From Flavobacteriales bacterium (GTDB lineage Bacteria; Bacteroidota; Bacteroidia; Flavobacteriales_F; PHOS-HE28), in NCBI GenBank assembly GCA_019912395.1, contig JAIOIH010000084.1, positions 1-32,752 on the forward strand: a DNA stretch of 32,752 nucleotides, in the 5' to 3' direction. Position 1 is the first letter of the stretch, and each line of letters begins with the position of its first letter. Below, piece after piece: positions 6,510 to 29,950 of this stretch. The translations under genes and the position numbers were made by a program. The notes beneath the pieces were generated by a model, which saw only the letters and a program-made list of their open reading frames with translations, was not told the origin of the DNA and ran no database searches.

Positions 6510-6545
6510 GAGCATCCACCTCCGAGTTGCGAGGTGGGCATGCTC
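6510..6545 (+). promoter_or_regulatory. Strong hairpin in the leader of the mannosidase gene
   Basis: Left arm GAGCAT+CCACCTC (6510-6522), loop of 8 nt (6523-6530), right arm GAGGTGG (6531-6537), a 2-nt bulge (6538-6539) and ATGCTC (6540-6545) give 13 base pairs. There is no T run after it, so it is not a typical terminator for the upstream gene. It fits better as an mRNA-stabilising or regulatory 5' structure. Confidence 0.6.
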
Positions 6546-6574
6546 CGGGTCCTGTGACCCTGCCACAAAATTCC

Positions 6575-8596
6575 ATGAACAACTCCACCAAGCAGCGGCC
6601 CGTATTTTTCCGGTCCGAGAAGAAGGTGGCCGTGTCGATCTATTGCATGCTGGTTGCAGCTACGTTGATCCAGGCCCAGGAGCGGGACATTCCCTTGTTG
6701 GACGGATGGGCGTTCCGCCAAGCAGGCACGGAGCAATGGCATTCCGCGGAAGTGCCGGGTGTGGTGCATACGGACCTCTTGCGACACAGCCTGATCCCGG
6801 ACCCGTATGTCAACTTCAATGCGGACAGTGTACAGTGGATCGAGAGCGAGGACTGGGAATACACCCGTACGATCAACGCGGACAGCGCATTGCTACAGAA
6901 CGAACACGTCGACCTCGTCTTCAAAGGGCTGGACACCTTCGCAGAGGTCTACCTGAACGATGAACTGCTTGGCAACGCGGACAATATGTTCCGCTCGTGG
7001 GAGTGGCCGATCAGGGAGAAGCTGCGGCGCGGTGCCAATGCGTTGAAGGTGGCCTTCCGAAGCCCGGAAGCGGTAGGGGGAAAGTTGCGAGAGGCATACG
7101 GGCTGCAGTTACCGCATGACAGTGACCCCAGTGGCGAAGGACCGTACATCCGAAAAGCAGCTTACCAGTTCGGCTGGGACTTTGCGCCCCGGTTGGTGAG
7201 TTCAGGCATCTGGCAACCGGTGGAATTGCGTTGTTGGAGCGGAGCGCGCATCACTTCCTTTCAGCTGGATCAGCAGTTTGATACCGATAGCATTCGTGCG
7301 ACCATCCATGCCCGCGTTCGTGGTGATGCCCGTTCGTCAATTCAGTATTTCATGGACGACCGGCTGATCGGCGAACGAAATGTTGAACTCTCTTCCTCGG
7401 ACACGGTCGACGTTCCATTTCATTTTGCAGTGGACAAGAAGAGCCTGTGGTGGCCTGCAGGATCCGGTAAGCAAGTGCTGCATAGCGTCCGCGTGGAAGT
7501 GCGCAACGCCAAAGGCAAGTTGCTCGACGAAATCCAACGTAGCATCGGTTTCCGCAGTGTGGAACTACGCCAAGAGAAAGACAGCATTGGCCGCTCCTTC
7601 ACCTTCGTGATCAATGGTGTGCCCACCTTCATGAAAGGCTGCAACATCGTGCCGCCGGACATGTTCCCATCGCGCGCCGGGGATTCCGCTTGGGTCGTGT
7701 TGGTGGCCGATGCACAACGTGCGCACATGAACATGATCCGCGTCTGGGCCGGTGGCATCTACCCTCCCGATGCGTTCTTCGAAGCGTGCGACACCGCAGG
7801 CATCCTCGTGTGGCAGGACCTGATGTTCGCAAACCTCGTCCCTGCGGAAGGCGGTTTTCTGAACAACATCAAAGCGGAGGTGAAGGAGCAGGTCGCGAGG
7901 CTTTCGAAGCACCCAAGTGTCGCGGTGATCTGCGGCAACAACGAGCTGGATATCGCGTGGAGCAATTGGGGCTGGCAAGCGAAGTACGACCTGCACGGCG
8001 CTGATTCCGCGCGGGTGATAGACAGCAATCGCACGCTGTGGAAGGATGTGTTCAGAGTCCTTGCAGCCGATGCCGGTGTGGCATACACGTGGACCAGTCC
8101 GCTCAGCAACTGGGGCAACGCCGCCGGTCTCCAAAGCGGCGACCTGCATTATTGGGGTGTGTGGCACGGAGATGAACCCATCGCGGCTTTGGCGGACAAC
8201 GTGGGCCGCTTCGTGAGCGAGTACGGCTTCCAGAGTTGGCCGGACAGCGCGCTACTCGCGAAGTACATCGATCCCCAGCAGCTTCATCCGGGAAGTGCCG
8301 CAGTGCGATACCGCCAACGCAGCTACAAAACGGATGCACCGATCTGGAAGGCGATCGAACAGGAATTAGGCGACGAGCCGAAGACCTTAGGCCGCTTTAT
8401 CGAAGACAGCCAAACGGTTCAGGCGAAGGTGTACCAATTGGCGATCGAGGCACACATGACCGCCCAGCCAAATTGCATGGGCACGCTTCTTTGGCAGTTG
8501 AACAATTGCTGGCCGGGACCGAGCTGGAGCCTGATCGACCATGAGGGCAATTGGAAGCCGGGGATGTACGAAGTGCAGCGGTTGTATGGGCGCTGA
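6575..8596 (+). CDS. Glycoside hydrolase family 2 beta-mannosidase, short form
   Basis: A 673-aa exported enzyme predicted to release terminal beta-linked mannose from oligosaccharides. A signal peptide (about 1-36, ending TLIQAQE) precedes the GH2 jelly-roll domain (PGVVHTDLL, SEDWEYTRT), the Ig-like middle domain and the TIM barrel. The acid/base E457 is seen in CGNNELDIAW and the nucleophile E549 in SEYGFQSWP, about 90 residues apart as in characterised family members. The protein stops just after the WQLNNCWPGPSW block and so lacks the C-terminal beta-sandwich domains of typical 800-890-aa beta-mannosidases. The start at 6575 gives the only sensible signal peptide. No other carbohydrate-use gene is nearby. 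The stop lies one base from the end of a convergent gene. Confidence 0.9.
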   Translation: MNNSTKQRPVFFRSEKKVAVSIYCMLVAATLIQAQERDIPLLDGWAFRQAGTEQWHSAEVPGVVHTDLLRHSLIPDPYVNFNADSVQWIESEDWEYTRTINADSALLQNEHVDLVFKGLDTFAEVYLNDELLGNADNMFRSWEWPIREKLRRGANALKVAFRSPEAVGGKLREAYGLQLPHDSDPSGEGPYIRKAAYQFGWDFAPRLVSSGIWQPVELRCWSGARITSFQLDQQFDTDSIRATIHARVRGDARSSIQYFMDDRLIGERNVELSSSDTVDVPFHFAVDKKSLWWPAGSGKQVLHSVRVEVRNAKGKLLDEIQRSIGFRSVELRQEKDSIGRSFTFVINGVPTFMKGCNIVPPDMFPSRAGDSAWVVLVADAQRAHMNMIRVWAGGIYPPDAFFEACDTAGILVWQDLMFANLVPAEGGFLNNIKAEVKEQVARLSKHPSVAVICGNNELDIAWSNWGWQAKYDLHGADSARVIDSNRTLWKDVFRVLAADAGVAYTWTSPLSNWGNAAGLQSGDLHYWGVWHGDEPIAALADNVGRFVSEYGFQSWPDSALLAKYIDPQQLHPGSAAVRYRQRSYKTDAPIWKAIEQELGDEPKTLGRFIEDSQTVQAKVYQLAIEAHMTAQPNCMGTLLWQLNNCWPGPSWSLIDHEGNWKPGMYEVQRLYGR

Positions 8597-8597
8597 T

Positions 8598-8756
8598 TCA
8601 AGGCTTCAGCCCCACGATCTTCCCGTCGATCGTCACCCACACCTTGGTGCCGTGGATCTTGGCTTGGCGGCGGGCTTCCTTGGCGGCCTCTTTCAAGGCC
8701 TTGGTCACCGCCTTCACAAAGGCGTCCTGTTCCTTCTTGATCAGCGCTTTGGTCAT
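8598..8756 (-). CDS. 52-aa lysine-rich protein, putative partner/antitoxin of the zeta-like kinase
   Basis: A small protein whose ATG (8756-8754) overlaps the TGA of the upstream zeta-like kinase by four bases (ATGA), so it should be translated with it. Residues 1-35 are a strongly basic amphipathic helix (MTKALIKKEQDAFVKAVTKA and on); residues about 36-52 look like a beta hairpin (KVWVTIDGKIVGLKP). The pattern helix, small beta hairpin with a DGK turn, and terminal Pro resembles the small proteins often found beside COG4185-type kinases, but no named family could be assigned. An antitoxin role is inference from size, charge, position and overlap. The gene runs convergent to the mannosidase, with stops one base apart. 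Confidence 0.7.
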   Translation of the reverse strand: MTKALIKKEQDAFVKAVTKALKEAAKEARRQAKIHGTKVWVTIDGKIVGLKP

Positions 8757-9283
8757 GGGTGCTTCTCTAATAGGACGGGTGTGGACCCGGAGTTGTCATA
8801 GACCGCCGAAACATGCGCGAGTGAACGGTAATGTTCAACAAAGTTAGGCCATCCGCGCTCAAACCGGCGCCTGACATCTTCCGCCGGAACATGGTGACCA
8901 CCTTGCTTTACTCGGTGGGCCACACGTTTCATGGCAAGCTCCGGACTGCTCAGTTTGAGAAACACGATCTCAACCCAATAACCAGCTTTCTTCAAGTTCC
9001 GAACCCTTTCCAAGTAGGTCTTTCCGCTCAAGGTAGATTCCAAAGCAAAGGATGTCCGCTCCTTGGTCAAGCGATCCAACTCAGAAAGCAGTACGCGCCC
9101 AGCAGCACGAGCGGCCAATTCAGGATGCAACGGCGACAATCCGGACGCGATCAGATCCGCGTTCACGAACCGCAGGATACCCTTGTCCTTCGTAAGGAAT
9201 TTGCGCGCAAACGTGGTTTTCCCCGCACCATTTGGCCCGGCGATTATGATGCACTTCGGCTGCAACATTTTGCTACGAGCCAT
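8753..9283 (-). CDS. Zeta-toxin-like P-loop kinase (COG4185 type)
   Basis: A 176-aa cytoplasmic P-loop protein. The Walker A motif GPNGAGKT is at residues 16-23; FVNADLIASGLSP holds the Asp expected to contact the phosphate acceptor, and FALESTLSGKTY and RVKQGGHHVPAEDVRRRF (conserved basic residues of the family) follow. Zeta toxins phosphorylate UDP-N-acetylglucosamine and block cell-wall synthesis; COG4185 members are shorter relatives whose substrates are mostly unknown. The ATG at 9283 overlaps the dxs stop in TGATG, and the gene's own stop overlaps the start of the 52-aa gene in ATGA. The placement as a fully overlapping passenger of dxs is unusual. Family assignment is firm; toxicity is inference. 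Confidence 0.88.
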   Translation of the reverse strand: MARSKMLQPKCIIIAGPNGAGKTTFARKFLTKDKGILRFVNADLIASGLSPLHPELAARAAGRVLLSELDRLTKERTSFALESTLSGKTYLERVRNLKKAGYWVEIVFLKLSSPELAMKRVAHRVKQGGHHVPAEDVRRRFERGWPNFVEHYRSLAHVSAVYDNSGSTPVLLEKHP

Positions 9284-11223
9284 CAAGCACTCGCCCGATT
9301 CCCTTTGCTCACCGCGGGCAACATCTCCTTCACCGCAGCAACCAGCGCGACATCGTCAAAGCCGCATTCGGTGTAAAGCTCCTTCTGCGTGCCGTGCTCT
9401 ATGAAATGGTCCGGGATACCAAGACGCTTTACTTGGGCCTGATATCCATGGTCCGCCATGAACTCCAGTACGGCACTGCCCATACCGCCCATGATGCTGC
9501 CGTCCTCGATGGTGATCACATGCTTGAACTTGCCGAAGACCTCGTGCAAGAGCATCTCGTCGATCGGCTTCGCGAAGCGTATGTCGTAGTGCGCCACGCT
9601 GTAGCCCTCGGCCTGTAGCGCGTCGATGCCCTTGGCGGCGATGTTGCCGATGTGCCCGATGCTCAATACGGCGATGTCGTTACCGGAGCGCAGTTTGCGG
9701 CCTGTGCCGATGGTGATCTCGCGGAAGGGCGTTTTCCATTCCGTCATCACGCCTTCGCCACGCGGGTAGCGGATGCTGAACGGGCCGTTGTCGCGGAGCT
9801 GCGCGGTGTACATCAGGTTGCGCAGTTCCTCTTCGTTCATCGGTGCGCTCACGATCATGTTCGGGATGCAGCGGAAATAGGCGATGTCGAAGGCGCCGTG
9901 GTGCGTGGGGCCATCGGCACCCGCTAATCCCCCGCGATCGAGGCAGAGCACCACGTGCAGGTTCTGCAGGGCCACATCGTGCACTACTTGATCATAGGCG
10001 CGCTGCATGAACGAGCTGTAAATGTTGCAGAACGGGATCAGCCCCTGCGTGGCCATGCCGGCGCTGAAGGTGACGGCGTGCTGCTCGGCGATGCCCACGT
10101 CGAACGCGCGGTCCGGCATCGCCTTCATCATGATGTTCAGGGAACAGCCACTGGGCATGGCGGGCGTTACGCCCACGATCTTCGGGTTCTTTTCCGCCAG
10201 CTCCACGATCGTGTGGCCGAAGACGTCCTGGTATTTCGGCGGCTGTGGGCTCTTGGGCAGCACCTTGATGATCTCGCCGGTTTCCTTATTGAACAAGCCG
10301 GGTGAGTGCCACACGGTGGGGCTGCCATCCTCGGCGGGTTTGTAGCCCTTGCCCTTCATCGTTACGGCATGCAGGATCTTGGGGCCGGGGATGTCCTTCA
10401 GGTCGCGGAGCACCTTCACCAAGCGTTCCACATCGTGACCGTCCACCGGGCCGAAGTAGCGGAACTGGAGGCTTTCAAAGAGGTTGCTTTGCTTGAGCAG
10501 AGCGGCCTTCACGGCGTTTTCCACCTTTTGGGCAATGGCCTGCGCATTGGGTCCGAATTTGCTGACCTTTCCGAGCAGCTTCCACACCTCGTCCTTCACC
10601 TTGTTATAGCTCTGGCTGGTGGTGATGTCGGTGAGGTATTCCTTGAGCGCGCCCACGTTGGGGTCGATGCTCATGCAATTGTCGTTCAGCACCACGAGCA
10701 GGTCGCTGTTCGCGGTACCGCCGTGGTTGAGCGCCTCGAAGGCCATGCCGGCGGTCATCGCACCATCACCGATCACAGCGACGGTGTGACGGTCCAACTC
10801 GCCTTTCAGCTTGCTGGCCACGGCCATGCCGAGCGCGCCGCCGATGGAAGTGCTGCTGTGGCCCACGCCAAACGTATCGTACTCGCTTTCGCTGCGTTTG
10901 GGGAAGCCGCTCAAGCCTTTGTACAACCGGTTGGTGTGGAAATTCTCGCGCCTTCCGGTAAGGATCTTGTGCCCGTATGCTTGGTGACCGACATCCCACA
11001 CTAGCTGGTCATAAGGCGTGTTGAACACGTAATGCAACGCCACCGTAAGCTCCACTACGCCCAGACTGGCGCCGAAGTGGCCGCCCTTCACGCTCACCAC
11101 GTCGATGATGAAATCCCGCAGCTCCTGGCACACTTGATCAAGCTGTGCCTCGGGGATCTCACGCAGGTCCGAAGGGACGATGATCCGCTCGAGCAGCGGG
11201 TAGGGGCTGGTGGTCTGGCTCAC
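9283..11223 (-). CDS. dxs: 1-deoxy-D-xylulose-5-phosphate synthase
   Basis: A 646-aa thiamine-diphosphate enzyme that condenses pyruvate and glyceraldehyde 3-phosphate to DXP, the first step of the MEP isoprenoid pathway and also a source for thiamine and pyridoxal phosphate. The length is normal. The TPP/Mg motif GDGAMTAG is at about 152-159; GHSSTSIGGALGMA, the FGPVDGHD block, the pyrimidine-binding region (DVGIAEQHAVTFSAG) and the C-terminal transketolase domain (GSIMGGMGSAVLEF) are all present. The start is a GTG at 11223, 22 nt after a perfect -7 box; frames further upstream lack family similarity. It is the first gene of an overlapping trio with the zeta-like kinase and the 52-aa gene. 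Confidence 0.97.
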   Translation of the reverse strand: MSQTTSPYPLLERIIVPSDLREIPEAQLDQVCQELRDFIIDVVSVKGGHFGASLGVVELTVALHYVFNTPYDQLVWDVGHQAYGHKILTGRRENFHTNRLYKGLSGFPKRSESEYDTFGVGHSSTSIGGALGMAVASKLKGELDRHTVAVIGDGAMTAGMAFEALNHGGTANSDLLVVLNDNCMSIDPNVGALKEYLTDITTSQSYNKVKDEVWKLLGKVSKFGPNAQAIAQKVENAVKAALLKQSNLFESLQFRYFGPVDGHDVERLVKVLRDLKDIPGPKILHAVTMKGKGYKPAEDGSPTVWHSPGLFNKETGEIIKVLPKSPQPPKYQDVFGHTIVELAEKNPKIVGVTPAMPSGCSLNIMMKAMPDRAFDVGIAEQHAVTFSAGMATQGLIPFCNIYSSFMQRAYDQVVHDVALQNLHVVLCLDRGGLAGADGPTHHGAFDIAYFRCIPNMIVSAPMNEEELRNLMYTAQLRDNGPFSIRYPRGEGVMTEWKTPFREITIGTGRKLRSGNDIAVLSIGHIGNIAAKGIDALQAEGYSVAHYDIRFAKPIDEMLLHEVFGKFKHVITIEDGSIMGGMGSAVLEFMADHGYQAQVKRLGIPDHFIEHGTQKELYTECGFDDVALVAAVKEMLPAVSKGNRASA

Positions 11224-11245: not shown

Positions 11246-11253
11246 CAAAGGTA
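11246..11253 (-). promoter_or_regulatory. -7 element of the dxs promoter
   Basis: On the minus strand this reads TACCTTTG, an exact TAnnTTTG match, 22 nt before the GTG start of dxs. The -33 position has only TTAA at N20 spacing, a poor TTTG. Expected transcription start about 11240. Confidence 0.6.
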
Positions 11254-13048: not shown

Positions 13049-13414
13049 CTATCCCAAAGGCAACCTACGAACGCGCGCCACATGCCTGCCCATGGAATTG
13101 AGCGCACCTTCGAGTAATTCCGCCTCGAATTGGGCGAGAACCCGAATTATTGGCTGTAGAATGATCTCCGGTGCTGTATCCTGCTCACGAACTATTACCA
13201 CACTTGGTCCGGCACCGTTCGAATTGTACAGCAATGTGTTGAAGTCCAAGTCGTGGGTCAATAGCACTCTGCCCTCGGTGAAGGCCCACTCCATGATCAC
13301 CGCATCAAGTGCGCGCACATTACCAACCTGTGACCAATGATCTGCTTCATGCCCTGCGTTCCTAAGACCTTGAATGAGAGCCGGGGACAAACACATGTCC
13401 ACAATGAGCTTCAT
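13049..13414 (-). CDS. DUF5615-family PIN-like toxin
   Basis: A 121-aa PIN-like nuclease domain protein of the DUF5615 (Mut7-C-related) family, expected to be the toxin of a type II toxin-antitoxin pair with DUF433. Acidic residues that should form the metal site are seen: D6 in LIVDMCLSP, and the Asp pair in LLTHDLDFNTLL. Family members more often have DMNLSP or DENLSP, so the Asn is replaced by Cys here. The ATG at 13414 overlaps the antitoxin stop by four bases (ATGA). RNA cleavage is predicted for the family, not shown here. Confidence 0.9.
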   Translation of the reverse strand: MKLIVDMCLSPALIQGLRNAGHEADHWSQVGNVRALDAVIMEWAFTEGRVLLTHDLDFNTLLYNSNGAGPSVVIVREQDTAPEIILQPIIRVLAQFEAELLEGALNSMGRHVARVRRLPLG

Positions 13415-13641
13415 GCGCGTTCGAAGGGCACGTTCCGATCATTGGCCAGCAAAGTGGCATAGTTCAACGCCGCTGTGATGTCTGCATCTTCCAGATAGGG
13501 ATGAAGCGACAGGATCTCTTCCCGGGTCCTTCCTGCTGCCAAGAGGCCGGTAATGGTTGCCACCGTAATGCGAAGCCCACGGATACAGGGGCGTCCTCCC
13601 ATTTTACCCGGTTCGATCGTGATGCGCTCTGTGATATTCAT
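13411..13641 (-). CDS. DUF433-family antitoxin
   Basis: A 76-aa DUF433 protein (winged-helix-like, VapB45 type). The family pattern is complete: ITIEPGKMGGRPCIRGLRITVATI, then ILSLHPYLEDADITAALNYA. It is the likely antitoxin and autorepressor of the downstream DUF5615 gene, with antitoxin first and an ATGA overlap. A perfect -7 box (TATCTTTG) ends 7 nt before the ATG, so the mRNA may be leaderless. Confidence 0.9.
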   Translation of the reverse strand: MNITERITIEPGKMGGRPCIRGLRITVATITGLLAAGRTREEILSLHPYLEDADITAALNYATLLANDRNVPFERA

Positions 13642-13656: not shown

Positions 13657-13699
13657 ATGAAAAGAGATCCCGGCAACGGATCATAGCACGCCAAATACA

Positions 13700-26885: not shown

Positions 26886-29342
26886 CTAACCCCCATGCAC
26901 GAACACCCGCTTCACCCGAGGGCTTATCGCAGTGAGGGCCTCGTAGGGGATGGTGCCGAGGTCGCGGGCATAGTCCTGTAGCGGGTGCTCGGGCGAGAAG
27001 ACGAAGGCGTCATCGCCTGCCCTGCAGTGGATGTCGGTGATGTCCACCAGGCACATGTCCATGCAGATGGCACCGACGGTGCGGGCCTCCTTGTTGTGGA
27101 TCCAGACGCGGCCGCGGCCTTCGCCCAGGCGACGGGAAAGGCCGTCCGCGTACCCGATGGGGAGCACGGCGATGCGCATGGGGGCGGTGGTGCGTGCCTT
27201 GCGGCCGTAGCTGATGCTGTCTCCGGCGGGGATCTCCTTCACTTGGGCGATCACCGTGCGGAGCGTGCCGGTGGGGATCAGTTGGGCGGTCTCCTTGGCG
27301 TCCGCGCCGATGCCGTGCAGGCCGATGCCGAGGCGCACCATGCTGAAGCGGGCCTCGGGAAAGCGGGTGGCCCCGGCTGAATTTGCGATGTGCAACAGGG
27401 GTTCATAACCGAGCACCTCGATGATGGCGGAGGAAAGCGTCCTGAAGAGCGTGATCTGTTCGCGGGTGAAATCGTCGTGCGCGGGGTCCTCGCTGGCGGC
27501 GAGGTGGGAGAGGATGGAGGCCACGCGCAAGGTGCGGTTGCCGCGCAGGGCTTCCAGCAGTTCGGGCACGTCAGCGGGCATGAAGCCGAGGCGGTGCATG
27601 CCGGTGTCCAGCTTGATGTGTACGGGCGGGGCATCGGGCACGTGCGCCGCGAAGTCCATGGCTGCCTTCAGTGATCGTGCGTCGTAGACCTCCGCCTGCA
27701 GTTGGTGGCGGTGCAGCGTTTCCATCGGCACCGGCTCGGGGTTCATCACCAGTACGGGCGTGCGGATGCCATGCCGACGCAGCTCGATGCCCTCATCGGC
27801 GTAGGCCACCCCGAGCCAGGCCACCTGCTCATGCGCGAAGAATCGGGCCAGCTCCACGGCACCGCTGCCATAGCCGCCGGCCTTCACCATGGCCATGATG
27901 CGCACCTTGGGGCCGCAGCTTTCGCGGTAGTGGTTCAGGTTGTGCCGCATTGCCTCCAGGTCCACCTCCATCACGGTGCCGTGGCTGCGTTCCTCCCAGC
28001 GCTCCACCACGCGTTCCAGCCCGAAGCGGCGCGCACCCTTCACCAGCGTCACCGCTCCGTTCACCGGCGGTTCCGGAAGGGCTTGCAGCAAGTGCTCGGC
28101 ATCGCGGAAGAAGCGCGCGGACCCGTTGAACAATGCGGCATGTGCCTGCATCTCCGGACCCACGGCGATGAGCTGTTCCACTTCCGCGGCGCGCAACAGG
28201 CCCGCGATGCGCGCATAGAGCTGCGCCGGCGCCTCGCTGCTTTCGGCGATATCCGAGAGCACCACCGTTTTCGGCCTGCCCGTGGCCATGCGGGCGAGCT
28301 GTGAGAGGGCGATTGTGAGCGAGGCGAGGTCGTTGCTGTAGGCATCGTTCAGCAGGGTGCCGTTGTTGATCCCGGGCAGCATCTCCAGGCGCATGCTCAC
28401 GGGGCGGAGCTGATGGATGGCCTCTGCGATGGTCTTCGGCGTGCGGCCCAGCACGGTGAGCAGCGTGATGCAGTGCAGGGCGTTCTCCACGGAAGCGCTG
28501 TCCGGGAAGGGGATCAGCACATCGAAGTCGGTCCCGTCGCAGCGAAGCGCTAGGCGCGTTGCCGTGCCGTCCGTGGTCTCTTGGAGGATGCGCAGGTAGG
28601 CCTCCTCCTTCCGCGACCATGCACGCAGCGCGGGGCCGTCCAGTGCGGAGAGTACGGCATGCACGGCGGGATGATCGCGGCAGTAGACCACGGTCTTCGC
28701 ATCGTGGAAGAGCTTCGCCTTTTCCGCGGCCTTGGCCTCATCGCTGATGAAGTTCGCGCTGTGCGCCGGGCCGATGTTGGTGAAGATGCCGATGTCCGGG
28801 GCGATGATGCGGGCGAGGACCTGCATTTCGCCGGGCTCGCTGATGCCCGCCTCGAAGATGCCGAGGCTGTCCTCCGCTCCGATCTCCCACACGCTGAGGG
28901 GCACGCCCACCTGGCTGTTCCAGCTGCCGGGGCTGCGCACGATGCGTTCCTCCGGGGACAATAGCTGGTTGAGCCACTCCTTCACCACCGTCTTTCCGTT
29001 GCTGCCGGTGATGCCGATGACGGGCAGATGGAATTGCGCCCGGTGCCAAGCGGCCAGGTCTTGCAGGGCCGCGAGGGTATTGTCCACTTCGATCAGGCTC
29101 TCTCCCTCCCCGGGGACAACGGAACCGCGCCGTACGACGAAGGAGCGCACGCCGCGCTGCCGCAGCTCGGCGATGTAGCGGTGACCGTCGTGGTGCTTGC
29201 CGCTGAGGGCGATGAAGAGCGTGCCCTCCGGCGGGAAGGGCTGGCGCGTATCGATGGAAAGATGGCCGATGAGGCGGTCGGGCCCGTGGAGGCTTCCGCC
29301 GGTGGCGGCGGCGATCCCGCTGAGGAGCGCGCCTTGGGGCAT
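26886..29342 (-). CDS. murF-alr: Bifunctional MurF ligase / alanine racemase
   Basis: An 818-aa fusion typical of Bacteroidota. The N-terminal part (about 1-450) is UDP-N-acetylmuramoyl-tripeptide:D-alanyl-D-alanine ligase, with the ATP loop TGSNGKT at 112-118, the FEAGISEPGEM block and NDAYSND. The C-terminal part (about 455-818) is a PLP alanine racemase: K487 in MVKAGGYGSG binds PLP, Y712 in SISYGRKAR is the second catalytic base, and GIGLHGIG, PIGYADGLSRRLG and GAICMDMCLVDIT are present. One protein thus makes D-Ala and adds D-Ala-D-Ala to the peptidoglycan precursor. The ATG at 29342 overlaps the tdk stop (TGATG), so the two are co-translated. Confidence 0.96.
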   Translation of the reverse strand: MPQGALLSGIAAATGGSLHGPDRLIGHLSIDTRQPFPPEGTLFIALSGKHHDGHRYIAELRQRGVRSFVVRRGSVVPGEGESLIEVDNTLAALQDLAAWHRAQFHLPVIGITGSNGKTVVKEWLNQLLSPEERIVRSPGSWNSQVGVPLSVWEIGAEDSLGIFEAGISEPGEMQVLARIIAPDIGIFTNIGPAHSANFISDEAKAAEKAKLFHDAKTVVYCRDHPAVHAVLSALDGPALRAWSRKEEAYLRILQETTDGTATRLALRCDGTDFDVLIPFPDSASVENALHCITLLTVLGRTPKTIAEAIHQLRPVSMRLEMLPGINNGTLLNDAYSNDLASLTIALSQLARMATGRPKTVVLSDIAESSEAPAQLYARIAGLLRAAEVEQLIAVGPEMQAHAALFNGSARFFRDAEHLLQALPEPPVNGAVTLVKGARRFGLERVVERWEERSHGTVMEVDLEAMRHNLNHYRESCGPKVRIMAMVKAGGYGSGAVELARFFAHEQVAWLGVAYADEGIELRRHGIRTPVLVMNPEPVPMETLHRHQLQAEVYDARSLKAAMDFAAHVPDAPPVHIKLDTGMHRLGFMPADVPELLEALRGNRTLRVASILSHLAASEDPAHDDFTREQITLFRTLSSAIIEVLGYEPLLHIANSAGATRFPEARFSMVRLGIGLHGIGADAKETAQLIPTGTLRTVIAQVKEIPAGDSISYGRKARTTAPMRIAVLPIGYADGLSRRLGEGRGRVWIHNKEARTVGAICMDMCLVDITDIHCRAGDDAFVFSPEHPLQDYARDLGTIPYEALTAISPRVKRVFVHGG

Positions 29343-29950
29343 CAGGTCCGGGGCGTGTTCGCGGCATCCGCCTGTTCCGTGCGGGCCGCGTTGAAGCACG
29401 TGCGGCACAGCGGCTCGTAGCTGTCCGTTTCGCCCAGTAGGATCAGGTCCTTGCTGGCGTTGATGCGGTGGCTGTGGTTGGCGAGGTCGCCGCAGCGCAT
29501 GCAGATCGCGTGGACCTTGGTGACGAACTCGGCCATGGCCGTCAGCTGCGGCATGGGTCCGAAGGGACGGCCTTGGAAGTCCATGTCCAGGCCGGCGACG
29601 ATCACGCGCACGCCTTGGGAAGCGAGCTGTTCGCATACATCGGGCAGGCCGGCATCGAAGAACTGGGCCTCGTCCACGCCCACCACCTCGATGTCGTTGG
29701 CGAGCAGCAGCAGATTGGCGCTATTGGGCACGGGCGTGCTGCGGATGGTGTTCCTGTCATGGCTCACCACATCGGTCTCGTGGTAGCGGGTATCGGTGCC
29801 GGGCTTGAAGATCTCCACGCGTTGTTTGGCGTACTCCGCACGGCGCAACCGGCGGATCAATTCCTCGGTCTTTCCGGAGAACATGCTGCCGCAGATCACC
29901 TCGATCCAGCCCTTCCTCCGGGAGCGGCTACCGTTGTGTTCCAGGAACAT
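29342..29950 (-). CDS. tdk: Thymidine kinase
   Basis: A 202-aa type II thymidine kinase for the salvage of thymidine to dTMP. The P-loop GSMFSGKT is at 21-28, the Walker B-like block is [11 protein letters not shown], the lasso region has [14 protein letters not shown], and zinc cysteines are in ICMRCGD and EPLCRTCF. The start at 29950 ([15 protein letters not shown]) gives the usual short basic leader; the longer frame to 30571 runs antisense through the next gene. It overlaps murF-alr downstream. Confidence 0.96.

What the first reader, a model, noticed from the sequence alone, without database searches (positions are those of the whole stretch)
8598..11223. Zeta-toxin-like kinase and a 52-aa partner fused by overlap onto dxs
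The three minus-strand genes are joined by TGATG (dxs to kinase) and ATGA (kinase to 52-aa gene) overlaps, with the perfect -7 box only before dxs. A potential cell-wall-targeting kinase is therefore apparently expressed with an essential isoprenoid gene, which feeds undecaprenyl carrier lipid synthesis. The putative toxin precedes its putative antitoxin, the reverse of the usual order. This may be an addiction module fixed by an essential promoter, or a domesticated kinase with a metabolic role. Overlaps and motifs are seen directly; toxin/antitoxin roles are inferred.
Basis: partly seen in the sequence, partly recalled or inferred. Interest (0 to 1): 0.6.

Follow-up and report, generated by a model that had tools for sequence, protein, structure and literature searches.

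The report
Likely kinase toxin-antidote pair behind dxs
Directly behind an isoprenoid-making gene sits a small kinase with a 52-residue partner, a two-gene unit seen in several bacterial phyla that looks like a poison-and-antidote pair, though no growth test has been done.

Summary
The chain is real: dxs (11223-9283), a 176-aa zeta-family kinase (9283-8753) and a 52-aa gene (8756-8598), joined by TGATG and ATGA. The promoter claim is weak: the -7 box occurs six times on that strand. Of 69 intact close kinase relatives, 67 have a 45-90 aa gene at their stop and 2 carry it fused; in a second sample, 25 separate and 3 fused of 28. Kinase-first order is the family's rule. The partner matches no family in four libraries. 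In the genus the partner is in 20 of 45 genomes; beside it the kinase is intact in 11, broken in 6, absent in 3; no kinase was found without partner. The published toxin-first pair AvrRxo1:Arc1 shows the same pattern. The UDP-GlcNAc motif GTxR is missing in 25 of 25 relatives, so a cell-wall target is unsupported. Linkage to dxs is confined to this genus and loose, so 'fixed by an essential promoter' fails; elsewhere the pair often follows other housekeeping or restriction genes. Toxicity and substrate are untested. Best reading: a toxin-antitoxin module, a new variant of a known kind.

The parts
9283..11223 (-). dxs, 1-deoxy-D-xylulose-5-phosphate synthase, GTG start, 646 aa
   Evidence: TIGR00204 779 bits; 43 of 45 genus genomes match it
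11246..11253 (-). TACCTTTG, possible -7 box 22 nt before the dxs start; one of six on this strand
9281..9285 (-). TGATG: dxs stop and kinase start share one base
8753..9283 (-). zeta-toxin-family P-loop kinase, 176 aa; proposed toxin
   Evidence: PF06414 E 8e-15; fold of the fused homologue L028 nearest zeta/PezT and polynucleotide kinase; dN/dS 0.08-0.13 in 8 of 9 compared pairs, the ninth saturated
9215..9238 (-). Walker A motif GPNGAGKT of the kinase (residues 16-23)
9155..9157 (-). invariant Asp43 (NAD motif), candidate catalytic base
   Evidence: invariant in 25 of 25 rows; equivalence to zeta Asp67 is inferred
9026..9040 (-). E-S-T-L-S (residues 82-86), in place of the E-G-T-x-R stretch of UDP-GlcNAc kinases
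   Evidence: GTxR absent and E-x-T-x-[SA] present in 25 of 25 rows; the register against zeta is recalled
8753..8756 (-). ATGA: kinase stop and partner start share four bases
8598..8756 (-). 52-aa partner, long helix plus C-terminal hairpin with DGK turn; proposed antitoxin
   Evidence: model pLDDT 84, pTM 0.48; such an ORF follows 67 of 69 intact kinases and is fused to the other 2; no library family

Best explanation
The kinase and the 52-aa protein form a two-gene toxin-antitoxin module of the zeta-kinase kind. The kinase (toxin) is translated first and, if unopposed, phosphorylates a small metabolite or nucleotide that is probably not UDP-GlcNAc. The 52-aa protein (antitoxin) is made by coupled translation right after it and binds the kinase, as the natural fusions suggest, holding it inactive. 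In this genome the pair probably rides on the dxs transcript, but dxs is only its landing place in this genus. Shown: genes, overlaps, family, constant pairing and order in the loci read, fusions, purifying selection on both in close pairs, kinase decay with partner intact, better codon adaptation of the partner in the genus. Inferred: toxicity, neutralisation by binding, co-transcription. Unknown: substrate.
For: Pairing: 67 of 69 intact high-scoring kinases have a separate 45-90 aa ORF starting -25 to +10 nt from their stop, the other two (L007, L152) are in-frame fusions; lower-scoring zeta-family kinases have such an ORF in 2 of 14. Second sample, the phylum of L031's genome: 25 of 28 separate, 3 of 28 with a C-terminal extension, the one in L218 weak. 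Viral contigs: 3 of 5 separate, 2 of 5 fused. Asymmetric loss: partner in 20 of 45 genus genomes; beside it the kinase is intact in 11, broken in 6, absent in 3; no kinase without partner. Outside the genus 11 of 11 broken or partial kinases keep a downstream ORF. dxs matches of the same genomes hold no stops. Selection: kinase dN/dS 0.08-0.13 in 8 of 9 pairs; partner 0.08-0.47 in 17 pairs, including pairs whose kinases are broken or missing. Partner codon adaptation exceeds the kinase's in 11 of 11 genus genomes. Precedent: PMC4938570 (passages): AvrRxo1:Arc1, antitoxin downstream of toxin, arc1 intact downstream of all avrRxo1 homologues including pseudogenes.
Against: No growth, binding or enzyme data. 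The partner has no detectable match to PezA, epsilon or Arc1 in sequence or by Foldseek. The partner is a smaller target than the kinase (52 against 176 codons), so 9 to 0 is only suggestive: about 0.1 by chance if hits scale with length; and the lone partner of G004 may never have had a kinase there. Over all pairs the partner is less constrained than the kinase (median pN/pS 0.61 against 0.32), with no difference between genomes with intact and without intact kinase (0.61 and 0.62), and past selection may predate kinase loss. The named relatives are all MAGs and most genus genomes are fragmented, so some frame breaks may be assembly errors. Kinase constraint also fits an ordinary enzyme. The model gave no coordinates, so docking was not seen.
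Confidence: 0.72

Rival explanations
1. A domesticated metabolic kinase with a small obligatory regulatory subunit; the partner activates or stabilises the kinase, and the dxs linkage reflects a role in isoprenoid or nucleotide metabolism.
For: Both genes are under purifying selection in close pairs. The nearest folds include polynucleotide, gluconate and shikimate kinases. 16 of 17 genus copies lie downstream of dxs.
Against: No dxs match at any of the 89 non-genus loci tested; neighbours there differ in function. The kinase is broken or absent while the partner stays, the reverse of what a subunit without its enzyme would predict. Patchy distribution: 17 of 45 genus genomes have the kinase or a broken copy.
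Confidence: 0.15
2. Not exclusive of the best explanation: a defence (abortive-infection-like) module in which the kinase is released on phage infection and depletes a nucleotide or cofactor, the partner being the inhibitor that is titrated or degraded.
For: In other genomes the pair overlaps restriction genes: HsdS (L127), MmeI (L033), HsdR (L171, L200). It lies on Synechocystis pSYSG, where PMC4963859 describes a potential defence island (passages), and on five viral contigs.
Against: Only weak P-loop matches in PADLOC (best E 0.001). In this window the genes scanned nearby are housekeeping or enzyme genes and a DUF5615 pair; not every gene of the window was scanned.
Confidence: 0.3
3. The 52-aa frame is a chance ORF and the kinase acts alone.
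For: Small, and without any family match.
Against: Conserved over phyla at the same junction; dN/dS 0.08-0.47; fused to the kinase in several lineages.
Confidence: 0.02

Closest known systems
AvrRxo1:Arc1 (zeta-like kinase and downstream antitoxin, plant-associated bacteria)
   Same: zeta fold (4z8u_A Z 13.8, 3.1 A over 172 residues); toxin gene first, antitoxin second; antitoxin stays intact behind toxin pseudogenes (PMC4938570, passages)
   Different: The kinase here is 176 aa, with only a kinase domain; partner 52 aa with no sequence or fold match to Arc1 found; substrate unknown
epsilon/zeta and PezAT
   Same: P-loop kinase of Pfam PF06414; best Foldseek hits 2p5t (E 1e-8) and 1gvn (E 5e-8) for the fused homologue
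   Different: Order reversed; no epsilon or PezA match in the partner; GTxR UDP-GlcNAc motif absent
M. tuberculosis Rv0366c-Rv0367c, 'non-canonical PezAT-like' pair
   Same: Short zeta-like kinase (197 aa) lacking the GTxR motif (PMC6362051, passages)
   Different: There the putative antitoxin is upstream and predicted to hold an RHH domain; the paper reports it largely confined to Corynebacteriales
EzeT of E. coli
   Same: Single polypeptide joining a zeta kinase and its antitoxin domain (a passage in PMC4963859), like the natural fusions found here
   Different: EzeT's antitoxin domain is N-terminal; in the fusions here the partner-like domain is C-terminal
Synechocystis PCC 6803 pSYSG zeta gene and 59-aa gene
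   Same: Same kinase subfamily (48% identity) and an overlapping 59-aa partner
   Different: On a plasmid. PMC4963859 mentions five neighbouring genes as TA-related but below its criteria; that these include this pair is my inference from gene order

Membership tests
Zeta toxin kinase superfamily (PF06414) | Score above the Pfam gathering cut-off | tested here: met
   55.2 bits against 22.3
Zeta toxin kinase superfamily (PF06414) | Walker A motif and catalytic Asp | tested here: met
   GPNGAGKT; D43 invariant in 25 of 25; Asp equivalence inferred
UDP-GlcNAc-phosphorylating zeta/PezT | GTxR substrate motif | tested here: not met
   0 of 25 rows; role of the motif from PMC6362051
epsilon/zeta, PezAT operon | Antitoxin gene upstream of the toxin gene | tested here: not met
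   Upstream is dxs; partner downstream
epsilon/zeta, PezAT operon | Epsilon or PezA homologue as antitoxin | tested here: inconclusive
   No match in a profile search of PDB sequences or by Foldseek; a missing match does not exclude it
AvrRxo1:Arc1 | Toxin first, antitoxin directly downstream | tested here: met
   (order; activity untested)
AvrRxo1:Arc1 | Arc1 homologue as partner | tested here: inconclusive
   No hit to AvrRxo1-ORF2 chains
Type II toxin-antitoxin | Two small adjacent co-directional genes, usually coupled | tested here: met
   67 of 69 plus 2 fusions
Type II toxin-antitoxin | Toxin inhibits growth and antitoxin protein neutralises it by binding | not testable with these tools
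   needs expression assays
dxs operon component | Stable adjacency to dxs across genomes | tested here: not met
   Gap -4 to 4556 nt in the genus; 23 of 43 dxs-bearing genus genomes had neither gene at the limits used; no dxs match at 89 non-genus loci

The most novel reading that the evidence does not exclude
A promoterless toxin-first kinase and antidote module that repeatedly settles on the 3' ends of housekeeping genes in many phyla (dxs here; genes for IMP dehydrogenase, adenylosuccinate lyase, quinolinate synthase, aldolase, SAH hydrolase, UvrC, glycine decarboxylase elsewhere), borrowing their promoters and ribosomes. It solves the toxin-first problem by translational coupling and, in this genus, by much better codons in the antidote than in the toxin, and its antidote outlives the kinase as an anti-addiction gene.
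Probability: 0.3. Interest if true: 0.66.

Novelty: new variant of a known kind. Interest (0 to 1): 0.5.

Why it matters
Zeta kinases are best known as UDP-GlcNAc kinases with an antitoxin encoded upstream. This is a subfamily spread over several phyla without the UDP-GlcNAc motif, with the putative antidote gene second and an antidote family absent from the four curated libraries searched, so genes now named 'zeta toxin family' and 'hypothetical protein' could be paired and tested. The natural fusions and broken-kinase genomes give ready controls. If the 3'-end habit is real, it shows a selfish module living on essential genes without a promoter of its own.

Tried and rejected
Considered and rejected: (a) chance 52-aa ORF, rejected by conservation and position. 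(b) dxs-specific metabolic operon, rejected by the neighbour survey. (c) UDP-GlcNAc kinase, motif not met. (d) A unique -7 box controlling all three genes: boxes are not much commoner than chance and not unique. (e) Codon asymmetry as a property of the whole family: clear in the genus, weaker elsewhere, with partner GC3 above kinase GC3 in 16 of 20 GC-rich, 15 of 34 middle and 19 of 28 AT-rich loci. Within the genus the best kinase stretch of equal length reaches the partner's value in 3 of 11 genomes (G039, G034, G024).

Led nowhere: literature searches COG4185, 'novel antitoxin' (54), 'zeta-like ... gene order' (55), 'Verrucomicrobia ... fusion' (95; one general paper listed, not opened), 'reverse order' (96; two papers listed, not opened). 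A plasmid search with the 52-aa protein found nothing, not even the Synechocystis partner. Foldseek with the partner alone found no match better than E 2. An alignment of the fusion with partner-only rows misplaced those rows and was not used. The second-look search covers only model residues 6-177, so the partner domain was barely tested there. A profile search of PDB sequences with the kinase alignment reached Pnkp1 but not zeta or PezT at E 1e-5.

Rows dropped before counts: only intact kinases were counted (86 of the 114 loci, recounted); 3 of these had less than 180 nt downstream (L040, L043, L173). The 69 include near-duplicates (for example L136 and L138) and 11 loci of one genus. Upstream-gene scans covered 40 ORFs chosen for length and closeness, not all; of the 34 close upstream ORFs L049, L133, L135, L157 and L214 were not scanned. 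No baseline was computed for how often any gene follows a housekeeping gene.
Full report
Observation. The minus strand of the window carries dxs (11223-9283, GTG start), a 176-aa P-loop kinase (9283-8753) and a 52-aa gene (8756-8598); stops and starts overlap as TGATG and ATGA. dxs is a clear DXP synthase (TIGR00204, 779 bits). [quoted passage not shown] The 52-aa protein matches nothing in Pfam, NCBIfam or PADLOC worth naming (two NCBIfam matches at E 0.1-0.2) and nothing in PHROGs; 25 aligned relatives give no consistent Pfam or NCBIfam match. The 'perfect -7 box only before dxs' is not unique: TAnnTTTG occurs six times on this strand (about 2.5 expected), also inside dxs and inside the kinase, and the dxs copy lacks a TTG at 17-23 bases. 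A single promoter for all three genes is plausible from the overlaps but not shown.

Pairing. I searched by kinase similarity, so the partner was not selected for. In one search, 114 loci were examined; 86 have an intact kinase (recounted). Of the 69 of these that score at least 160 bits against the family profile and have at least 180 nt downstream, 67 have a separate 45-90 aa ORF starting between -25 and +10 nt of the kinase stop, and the remaining two are in-frame fusions with a C-terminal partner-like domain (L007, the same contig as L028, and L152). Among 14 lower-scoring zeta-family kinases 2 have such an ORF, one of which (L166) may be a true partner. In a second sample, the phylum of the genome of locus L031, 68 of 288 genomes have a match; of 29 loci read, 28 have an intact kinase, 25 with a separate partner ORF and 3 with a C-terminal extension (L198 and L211 partner-like, L218 weaker). 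On viral contigs 6 relatives were found; of the 5 longer ones, 3 have a separate partner and 2 a fused one. Partner groups from different clades align as profiles (hhalign probability 94-97% for A-B, A-C, A-E, B-C and C-E; 35-81% for pairs with the small group D). In every pair read the kinase is first.

Genus survey. In 45 genomes of the same genus the subfamily kinase or a broken copy of it is in 17 (19 matched; G010 and G040 match only through a divergent subfamily), the partner in 20, dxs in 43. Among the 20, the kinase is intact in 11, broken in 6 (G006, G028, G030, G031, G032, G042) and absent in 3 that keep the partner (G023, G005, G004). G023 is close to the window's species (dxs 97% identical) and has only 20 nt between dxs stop and partner. 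G005 keeps a short kinase remnant with an internal stop. The lone partner of G004 lies away from dxs and may never have had a kinase. No genome was found with the kinase but without the partner. The dxs matches of these genomes contain no stop, though that of G006 ends at residue 624 of 646 and those of G022, G028 and G031 are cut by contig ends. The neighbouring glycosidase gene aligns in one piece in five genomes including G030 and G042, so sequencing error is not the general cause. The lesions differ between genomes. Outside the genus, 11 of 11 broken or partial kinases kept a downstream ORF. A caution: the partner is a smaller target than the kinase.

Linkage to dxs. Sixteen of the 17 genus copies lie downstream of dxs on the same contig and strand, but at very different distances: overlapping or within 10 nt in G000, G039, G024, G009 and G028; 143-334 nt in G017, G033, G020 and G022; 1.3-4.6 kb in G034, G032, G021 and G018. 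Twenty-three of 43 dxs-bearing genomes had neither gene. None of 89 loci outside the genus has a dxs match (the 29 loci were not tested for it). Of 95 non-genus loci scored, 34 have a same-strand ORF of 90 aa or more ending at most 65 nt before the kinase, and 61 do not. Of the 34, 16 are housekeeping or metabolic genes by Pfam domain (IMP dehydrogenase twice, adenylosuccinate lyase, class II aldolase, SAH hydrolase, M3 peptidase in L136 and, by 95-99% identity to it, L137 and L138, aldose epimerase, class III aminotransferase, NadA, UvrC, glycine decarboxylase, glycogen debranching enzyme, a pyridine nucleotide-disulphide oxidoreductase, SpoU methylase); six are restriction or mobile-type genes (MmeI, HsdS, HsdR twice, a helicase, RhuM); seven had no family and five were not scanned. 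I computed no baseline, so this habit is a lead, and most loci do not show it.

Selection and codons. Among intact genus copies dN/dS of the kinase is 0.08-0.13 in 8 of 9 compared pairs (the ninth is saturated, some others nearly so); that of the partner is 0.08-0.47 in 17 pairs, including pairs with broken or missing kinases. Over all genus pairs median pN/pS is 0.32 for the kinase and 0.61-0.62 for the partner, alike with and without an intact kinase. Relative to the window's long genes, the partner has higher codon adaptation than the kinase in 11 of 11 genomes (window: 0.78 against 0.40). Recoding the partner with the kinase's codon usage reaches the observed value in at most 17 of 2000 trials in 9 of 11 genomes (105 in G024, 276 in G034); in 3 of 11 some kinase stretch of equal length does as well. 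The genomes are relatives, so these are not independent. Outside the genus the difference is weaker. I read it as one way to keep antidote above toxin despite the order; other causes are possible.

Structure and substrate. The natural fusion L028 was predicted with pLDDT 87.9 and pTM 0.73. Foldseek ranks PezT (2p5t, E 1e-8) and zeta (1gvn, E 5e-8) first; VIA-align places polynucleotide kinase (Z 16.9, 2.9 A, 156 residues) and zeta (1gvn_B Z 15.8, 2.6 A, 167 residues) about one Z unit apart, AvrRxo1 at 13.8 (3.1 A, 172 residues). The partner alone is a long helix plus hairpin (pLDDT 84, pTM 0.48) without a Foldseek match better than E 2. The GTxR motif that binds UDP-GlcNAc in zeta and PezT (PMC6362051, passages) is absent in 25 of 25 family members, which have a conserved E-x-T-x-[SA] (that this is the same place is recalled). 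A cell-wall target is therefore not supported; the papers on AvrRxo1 and Rv0366c argue likewise for their kinases (passages).

Mechanism. The most likely reading is a toxin-antitoxin module: kinase as toxin, partner as antidote by direct binding. Constant pairing, fusions, plasmid and viral occurrence, patchy presence and one-sided decay support it. The published pair AvrRxo1:Arc1 shows the same order and the same intact-antidote-behind-pseudogene pattern (PMC4938570, passages). Toxicity, neutralisation and co-transcription are inferred; the substrate is unknown.

Novelty. The kinase belongs to a known superfamily and the toxin-first order has a precedent. I found no description of this partner family in ten literature searches of one open-access library; I saw listings, and passages of three papers only, so this cannot show absence from print. 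PMC4963859 (passages) lists five pSYSG genes as TA-related but below its criteria; from gene order they appear to include the Synechocystis pair. I rate it a new variant of a known kind.

Noticed in passing
window 13049-13641 (-): A conventional TA-like pair: 76-aa ORF (13641-13411; DUF433-like from recall, not scanned) first, then a DUF5615 PIN-like protein (13414-13049, E 2e-22), with a four-base overlap and the only full TTG-N17-TATCTTTG site of this strand at 13676. It lies about 1.8 kb upstream of the dxs start and just upstream of a thiL-like gene; low codon adaptation like the kinase.
   Followed up: partly
window 26886-29636 (-): Mur ligase and alanine racemase domains in one frame (Mur_ligase_M plus Ala_racemase N and C), a cell-wall fusion enzyme.
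   Followed up: no
window 6527-8596 (+): A glycoside hydrolase family 2 type gene runs convergently, with one base between its end and the partner's stop; it aligns in one piece also in two genus members with a broken kinase, G030 and G042.
   Followed up: partly
L115 (G004 C10) 1557-1700: A lone partner-like gene away from dxs, with no kinase seen in the 3.5 kb read.
   Followed up: partly
L116 1218-3522 (Synechocystis pSYSG): A nucleotidyltransferase gene, the zeta kinase with its 59-aa partner, a DUF4433 gene and a macro-domain gene follow each other in one run, looking like stacked TA pairs.
   Followed up: no
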